Origin: Deltaproteobacteria bacterium
GTDB taxonomy: Bacteria > Myxococcota_A > UBA9160 > SMWR01
Assembly (NCBI GenBank): GCA_019310425.1
Contig: JAFDEI010000011.1
Location: forward strand, 1-43,082
Length of the DNA stretch: 43,082 bases
Direction: 5' to 3'
Shown: positions 6,729 to 7,328 of the stretch, one piece after another
Layout of the letters: each line of letters begins with the position of its first letter
Position numbering within the stretch: the first letter of the stretch is position 1
Notes under the pieces: generated by a model
What the model was told of the DNA's origin: nothing
Seen by the model: the letters and a program-made list of their open reading frames with translations, nothing else
Databases searched by the model: none
Made by a program: the position numbers and the translations under genes

Positions 6729-7259
6729 TCAGCGTGAATCGTCGGAAATATCCCGCTCCAGCACGGTCTTGCGCTCGAGGCGCGCAGCGTTCGCGATCGC
6801 TTCATCGCAGATGCGTCGCACCGCATCCGAGAGCGGAGCCAGAACTCCGTCGGAAGTATTGAATCCGGACTTCGCGCGGATGTATTCCTTGAGCCTGCTC
6901 GCAACGATCAGGATCTCGCGCGGCGGCACCTCGTCGGTGAAAGACGCTGCGGATGCCGGAACGATTCGGCGCTGCCCGGTCTTGGTCCCCTGCACTTCCC
7001 TGCTCGCCTTCACATCCCTGCTCGCCTTCGGCTCGGGGGGGGAGTCGGCCTCCGCCAGCTGCGGAGCGGACTTCTCGACGGCCCAGGTCTCGCGGTGGTT
7101 CGCTTCCGGCAGGTGAACCTCCCAGCACGTCACCGTGCAGAACACCAGCCCGGTCCGTTTGCGATTGCACGTCGAAACGTTGCACACCCAATAGGTTGCG
7201 CCGAGTTCGATCGGCTGCTTGCAGGTGCTACAGCGCCGCCACGCCTCACCAGTCGTCAT
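6729..7259 (-). CDS. Zinc-finger (CX2C...HX5H) / bacterial histone-fold fusion protein
   Basis: N-terminus CSTCKQPIELGATYWVCNVSTCNRKRTGLVFCTVTCWEVHLPEANH (CX2CX12CX4CX9CX3CX3HX5H). C-terminus ILIVASRLKEYIRAKSGFNTSDGVLAPLSDAVRRICDEAIANAARLERKTVLERDI fits the histone fold (RKTV...RDI end motif). Confidence 0.75.
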   Translation of the reverse strand: MTTGEAWRRCSTCKQPIELGATYWVCNVSTCNRKRTGLVFCTVTCWEVHLPEANHRETWAVEKSAPQLAEADSPPEPKASRDVKASREVQGTKTGQRRIVPASAASFTDEVPPREILIVASRLKEYIRAKSGFNTSDGVLAPLSDAVRRICDEAIANAARLERKTVLERDISDDSR

Positions 7260-7328
7260 CGAGACCTCCGAAACGACTCCAAACGTAGCACCCGTGCCGC
7301 GCAATCATCCGGCGATGCAGTTCCGCAC

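What the first reader, a model, noticed from the sequence alone, without database searches (positions are those of the whole stretch)
6729..7259. Zinc-finger-fused bacterial histone
The C-terminal 55 aa (ILIVASRLKEYIRAKSGFNTSDGVLAPLSDAVRRICDEAIANAARLERKTVLERDI) read as a histone fold with the hallmark RKTV-x-x-RDI end and resemble, from memory, the Bdellovibrio histone Bd0055. The N-terminus carries six Cys and two His (CX2CX12CX4CX9CX3CX3HX5H), enough for two zinc sites in a cross-brace-like finger, joined by a charged linker. Histone families with added domains, including zinc fingers, have been catalogued in bacteria, so the class may be known; this exact architecture and its function look little studied.
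Basis: partly seen in the sequence, partly recalled or inferred. Interest (0 to 1): 0.75.

Follow-up and report, generated by a model that had tools for sequence, protein, structure and literature searches.

The report
ZZ-type zinc-finger bacterial histone
The gene encodes a small bacterial protein that joins a two-zinc finger to a DNA-binding histone fold; this type ("ZZ histone") was catalogued in 2024, but what the finger binds is still unknown.

Summary
On the minus strand, 7259–6729 encodes 176 aa with an ideal ribosome-binding site. The N-terminal finger (C10, C13, C26, C31, C41, C45, H49, H55) keeps all eight ligands in 62/62 relatives. A variable linker follows, then a histone fold that matches Bdellovibrio HBb/Bd0055 by sequence (profile E 7e-17) and by structure (TM 0.9, 38% identity). 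Nine of ten mapped HBb DNA-contact residues are kept, α3 is truncated, and both face-to-face tetramer residues are missing. The gene is therefore a "ZZ histone" in the sense of Schwab et al. 2024: a new member of a known, uncharacterised class.

Beyond the catalogue: the finger is more conserved than the histone fold; it also occurs as a stand-alone 60–75 aa protein, including in genomes with no detectable histone fold; some members carry two histone folds in tandem; no gene neighbour is conserved.

Best mechanism: an HBb-like dimer that binds and bends DNA non-specifically and displays two flexibly tethered fingers, which recruit a conserved partner.

Noticed on the side, and possibly more notable: the same genome, and most of its bacterial class, carries a full-length HMf-like (nucleosomal-type) histone, a type the 2024 survey calls exclusively archaeal.

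The parts
6729..7259 (-). ZZ-histone gene, 176 aa + stop, ATG at 7259
   Evidence: relatives in 142/378 genomes of the phylum sample match some part of it
7265..7269 (-). Shine-Dalgarno GGAGG, 5 nt before the ATG
   Evidence: sequence
7062..7241 (-). Two-zinc cross-brace finger, residues 7-66 (site 1: C10, C13, C41, C45; site 2: C26, C31, H49, H55; pairing by analogy with Schwab 2024) plus conserved HRExWAxExxAP tail
   Evidence: all ligands 62/62; AF2 pLDDT 94; closest folds are p62/BIG ZZ domains, E 0.3, not significant
6924..7061 (-). Disordered, variable linker, residues 67-112
   Evidence: 21% mean pairwise identity; mostly low pLDDT, block means 47-64, lowest at 82-92
6963..6971 (-). Conserved basic patch R97-R98-I99 inside the linker
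   Evidence: R97 55/62, R98 52/62
6747..6923 (-). Histone fold of the alpha3-truncated, HBb-like type, residues 113-171 (alpha1 120-131, alpha2 137-160, alpha3 168-170)

Best explanation
The gene is a ZZ histone. The C-terminal histone folds of two copies pair into an HBb-like dimer that grips the DNA backbone through alpha1 and the L1/L2 loops and bends it without sequence specificity. Two long flexible linkers, each with a basic patch, hold two zinc fingers off the DNA. The fingers carry the more conserved surface and bind one conserved partner, more likely a protein or peptide than a histone tail. The protein thus acts as a low-copy adaptor that brings that partner to DNA, rather than as a bulk packaging histone. 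Shown here: family membership, conserved ligands, conserved DNA-contact residues, the histone fold, loss of tetramer residues, and separability of the finger. Inferred: dimerisation, DNA bending, partner recruitment, low abundance in this organism.
For: The HFD matches DNA-bound HBb (9f0e) at 38% identity, rmsd 1.0, TM 0.90. The ten HBb DNA-contact residues reported in PMC11317129 map to A120, S121, R122, K124, R128, N134, S136, K164, T165 and R169: seven identical, two K to R, one lost. Family-wide, S121 is 58/62, K124 60/62, N134 49/62, S136 58/62, T165 62/62 and R169 62/62. The face-to-face tetramer residues R48/N52 map to N157/L161 and are absent. Two HFDs fused in one chain in L083, L085 and L143 fit a dimeric working unit. 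The finger averages 63% pairwise identity against 57% for the HFD and 21% for the linker, so it has a specific constrained job. Stand-alone fingers in genomes G077, G150, G269, G330, G333, G346 and G365 without any HFD or PF00808 hit suggest the finger works without a histone. No operon partner: the best neighbour family occurs in 7 of 62 loci. The ZZ histone of Bdellovibrio is weakly expressed (PMC11390915).
Against: No multimer model, binding assay or expression data could be made for this organism. The finger partner is unidentified. The finger is basic (median net charge +4), which fits nucleic-acid binding as well as protein binding. A review (PMC11318664) states that deletion of both Bdellovibrio histone genes is lethal, which would sit less easily with a minor role, but Hocher 2023 as read here reports deletion attempts for bd0055 only.
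Confidence: 0.5

Rival explanations
1. The finger is a second nucleic-acid-binding module, so each dimer holds two DNA segments (or DNA and RNA) and works as a DNA bridge.
For: Finger is basic (median +4) with the invariant or near-invariant basic residues R33, R35, R56 and K14; weak Pfam echoes are of FCS/MYM/FLZ fingers; PARP-1 zinc finger 2 bound to DNA is among the weak fold hits; linker carries a basic patch.
Against: All finger fold hits are insignificant (best E 0.29), and the top ones are peptide-binding ZZ domains; conserved Trp and Glu residues (W46, W59, E62) suit a protein pocket better.
Confidence: 0.25
2. The finger reads the N-terminus or tail of another histone, like eukaryotic ZZ domains on H3, and targets the protein to existing bacterial chromatin.
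For: ZZ domains are the nearest folds and bind N-terminal peptides; in the window's own class 58 of 62 finger-bearing genomes also encode a second small histone.
Against: The only other histone detected in this genome has no tail: its frame opens at MGELPNAV directly after a stop. Most finger-bearing genomes outside the class have no second histone found, and seven with a stand-alone finger have none at all. Schwab 2024 notes the H3 pocket residues are not conserved.
Confidence: 0.12
3. The finger is a zinc or redox switch that controls DNA binding of the histone fold.
For: Eight invariant ligands per finger.
Against: High conservation of many non-ligand residues; the finger persists as a free-standing protein; nothing metal-related is a conserved neighbour.
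Confidence: 0.06
4. The ORF is a decayed or spurious reading frame.
For: No Pfam match for the single protein.
Against: Intact frame, ideal ribosome-binding site, invariant ligands and full-length relatives at 38-65% identity.
Confidence: 0.01

Closest known systems
ZZ histones (Schwab et al. 2024, PMC11390915; model D0LYE7 of Haliangium ochraceum; the Bdellovibrio member is probably Bd3044)
   Same: N-terminal C4 + C2H2 finger with the same ligand positions, flexible linker, C-terminal alpha3-type HBb-like histone fold.
   Different: Nothing architectural. The paper's profile position C43 (C53 in D0LYE7) for the sixth ligand does not fit the 62 sequences here, where it is C45; this looks like a slip in the text.
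Bacterial dimer histone HBb / Bd0055 (PDB 8cmp, 8fvx, 9ezz, 9f0e)
   Same: 38% identity over the fold, DNA-contact residues and RKTV...RD end conserved, FtF tetramer residues absent.
   Different: HBb is 60-odd residues with no finger or linker, and is abundant.
Eukaryotic ZZ domains (p62, BIG, PRT1, p300, HERC2, ZZZ3)
   Same: Cross-brace order of ligands (C4 site and C2H2 site), nearest folds by Foldseek.
   Different: E-values 0.3 or worse, TM about 0.5-0.6, no Pfam ZZ match, wider spacing (CX4C, CX3C), conserved C-terminal HRExWAxExxAP segment. Homology is not shown.
MYND and FCS/MYM fingers
   Same: FC-x3-C-x3-H core resembles the MYND C-terminal half; weak profile and fold hits.
   Different: Not significant; last ligand is His, not Cys.

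Membership tests
ZZ histone (Schwab 2024) | N-terminal finger with C4 and C2H2 zinc sites | tested here: met
   C10, C13, C26, C31, C41, C45, H49, H55 all 62/62; compact model at pLDDT 94. Zinc itself was not modelled.
ZZ histone (Schwab 2024) | C-terminal bacterial-dimer-like alpha3 histone fold | tested here: met
   HBb is the best match by sequence and by fold
alpha3 histone | alpha3 helix truncated to 3-4 residues, alpha2 4-5 residues shorter than in nucleosomal histones | tested here: met
   alpha3 modelled at 168-170 only; the stretch from N134-T-S to R163-K-T is 32 residues against 36 in HMfA and L001
bacterial dimer histone | RKTxxxD motif and alpha1 basic residues | tested here: met
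   R163-K164-T165 ... D170; R122, K124, R128
bacterial dimer histone | no additional domain | tested here: not met
   finger present, so it is not filed in this subgroup
Face-to-face histone | tetramer residues R48 and N52 | tested here: not met
   map to N157 and L161; position 161 is D or E in 51/62 relatives, and 157 is R in 12/62 (mapping)
Eukaryotic ZZ domain (Pfam PF00569) | significant profile or fold match | tested here: not met
   not among the 25 Pfam families shown for 60 members at E up to 1 (six further families were not shown); best PDB fold E 0.29
histone | forms a dimer and binds DNA | not testable with these tools
   contact residues conserved only; needs experiment

The most novel reading that the evidence does not exclude
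The finger, not the histone, is the ancestral working part: a previously undescribed bacterial cross-brace finger family that exists on its own, fused to one histone fold, or fused to two, and uses the histone fold merely as a generic DNA tether for a conserved, unknown partner.
Probability: 0.35. Interest if true: 0.55.

Novelty: new member of a known kind. Interest (0 to 1): 0.35.

Why it matters
ZZ histones are one of the few bacterial histone types with an added domain, and in the papers read here none has been purified. The data here turn the finger into a testable object: it is conserved more tightly than the histone fold and survives without it, so its partner should be found by pull-down of a 65-residue protein. 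The histone-tail-reader idea becomes unlikely for this genome because its only other detected histone has no tail. The same bacterial class also keeps a full-length HMf-like histone, so it could become a place to study two histone types side by side in bacteria.

Tried and rejected
Operon or partner by gene neighbourhood: nothing conserved, best family 7/62 loci. Pfam and NCBIfam on the single protein: nothing useful. PDB sequence search with the finger alone: no significant hit. Viral origin of the finger: no relative in IMG/VR, and only insignificant viral fold matches. Finger trees to count events: few columns and many open forks; they suggest at least two separate losses of the histone fold plus one divergent stand-alone finger clade. 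HFD tree: 16 of 17 stand-alone α3 histones of families f4 and f10 do not nest among the ZZ folds, with weak support. A face-to-face or nucleosomal assignment was rejected on residues and helix lengths.

Full report
Observation. The frame 7259–6729 on the minus strand encodes 176 aa. The start is supported by GGAGG five bases upstream.

Identity. The C-terminal 60 residues match the Bdellovibrio histone HBb/Bd0055 at E 1.6e-6. With a profile of 60 relatives the E-value is 7e-17, followed by Leptospira HLp at 1e-9 and Thermococcus HTkC at 1e-7. AlphaFold2 on that alignment gives α1 120–131, α2 137–160 and a three-residue α3 at 168–170 with block means of about 95. Foldseek ranks DNA-bound HBb first (9f0e, rmsd 1.0, TM 0.90 by target).

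DNA binding. The HBb residues with most DNA contacts (N22, R57, S9, T53, T8, S24, K10, K12, K52, K16; PMC11317129) map by the ungapped alignment (offset 112) to N134, R169, S121, T165, A120, S136, R122, K124, K164 and R128. Seven are identical, two are K to R, one is changed. The tetramer residues of face-to-face histones, R48 and N52, lie six and two places before the R of RxT (numbering). Here these are N157 and L161, so a dimer is expected. This is inference from residues; no multimer was modelled.

Finger. All eight ligands are invariant in 62 relatives, as are V28, F40 and R56. Near-invariant are W7, S11, K14, S29, T30, N32, R33, R35, W46, W59, A60, A65 and P66. The finger alone models at pLDDT 94. 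The nearest solved folds are ZZ domains of p62 and BIG and then MYND domains, but the best E-value is 0.29. No PDB sequence match and no Pfam ZZ match among the families shown were found. "ZZ-type" is therefore a description of topology; descent from eukaryotic ZZ domains is not shown.

Known class. Schwab et al. [quoted passage not shown] They report low expression in Bdellovibrio and a second histone in about half the proteomes. Every defining feature tested here is met. Bd3044, the longer second histone of Hocher et al. 2023 (PMC10627809), is probably the Bdellovibrio member. In the library searched, no paper reports biochemistry of a ZZ histone.

What is added here. (1) The finger is more conserved than the histone fold (63 versus 57% mean pairwise identity; linker 21%). 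(2) Stand-alone fingers of about 60–75 aa exist. In G077, G150, G269, G330, G333, G346 and G365 neither the histone-fold profile nor PF00808 finds a histone. In G227 and G310, relatives in the window's own family, the finger stands alone beside a PF00808 histone, with no histone-fold remnant found. (3) Two histone folds in one chain occur in L083, L085 and L143. (4) No neighbour gene is conserved. (5) Distribution: the finger is in 130 of 378 genomes of the phylum sample but only 4 of 148 in the phylum of G378, one of them marginal.

Companion histones. Counted by hand, the window's class has 62 finger-bearing genomes. In 38 of the 40 outside family f4 there is one PF00808 histone. In the 22 of family f4 there is none, but 20 carry a separate small α3 histone (examples L150–L165). 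Outside the class, 68 finger-bearing genomes have no PF00808 histone, and about nine have a second α3 fold. The finger therefore does not depend on a second histone, which argues against a histone-tail reader.

Side finding. The second histone of this genome (L001:1495–1713, 72 aa) aligns with HMfA of Methanothermus from residue 1 to 67 with one gap. It passes Pfam PF00125 at 8e-11 and PF00808 at 1e-9. Its RVS-to-RKT stretch is 36 residues, as in HMfA; the ZZ histone has 32. By eye on the alignment, the HMf tetramer residue H49 is G here, so assembly may differ. Its neighbour in the window's genome is GroEL, and GroEL motifs lie beside it in 13 of 31 loci, so archaeal contamination is unlikely. 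[quoted passage not shown] Whether other surveys have listed this family could not be settled with the open-access library.

Mechanism. Best supported is a dimeric DNA-bending histone fold that carries two tethered fingers, which recruit a conserved partner. The histone half is well supported by homology (about 0.85), the adaptor half is inference (about 0.5), and the partner is unknown. The main rival is that the finger itself binds nucleic acid, given its net charge of about +4.

Verdict. Modest interest, raised a little by the separable finger and by the companion histone.

Noticed in passing
L001:1495-1713 (+), G000:C153; similar in L096-L125: A full-length HMf-like, nucleosomal-type histone (72 aa, PF00125 and PF00808 over cut-off) occurs once per genome in 53 of 378 genomes, all in the window's class; the 2024 survey calls this type exclusively archaeal.
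   Followed up: partly
L150-L165 (family f4 genomes), L166 (family f10): Family f4 lacks the nucleosomal-type histone (0 of 30) but nearly all of its genomes (28 of 30, hand count) carry a separate 60-odd-residue HBb-like alpha3 histone: an apparent swap of the general histone within one class.
   Followed up: partly
L127-L133, L136, L140, L147, L148: Stand-alone copies of the zinc finger, about 60-75 aa, some as paralogues of a ZZ histone and some as the only finger in the genome.
   Followed up: partly
L083:1938-2651 (-), L085:5986-6744 (+), L143: Finger followed by two histone folds in one chain, which may be a covalent histone dimer.
   Followed up: no
PMC11390915, legend of Fig. 4: Sixth zinc ligand is given as C43/C53; 62 sequences here put it two residues later (CX3C), so the printed number is probably a slip.
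   Followed up: yes
window:7329-7703 (-): Upstream neighbour is a YaiI/YqxD (DUF188) protein; the neighbourhood is not conserved in relatives.
   Followed up: yes
window:6402-6653 (+): Convergent 83-aa ORF that looks like a small membrane protein, no Pfam match; coding status not tested.
   Followed up: no
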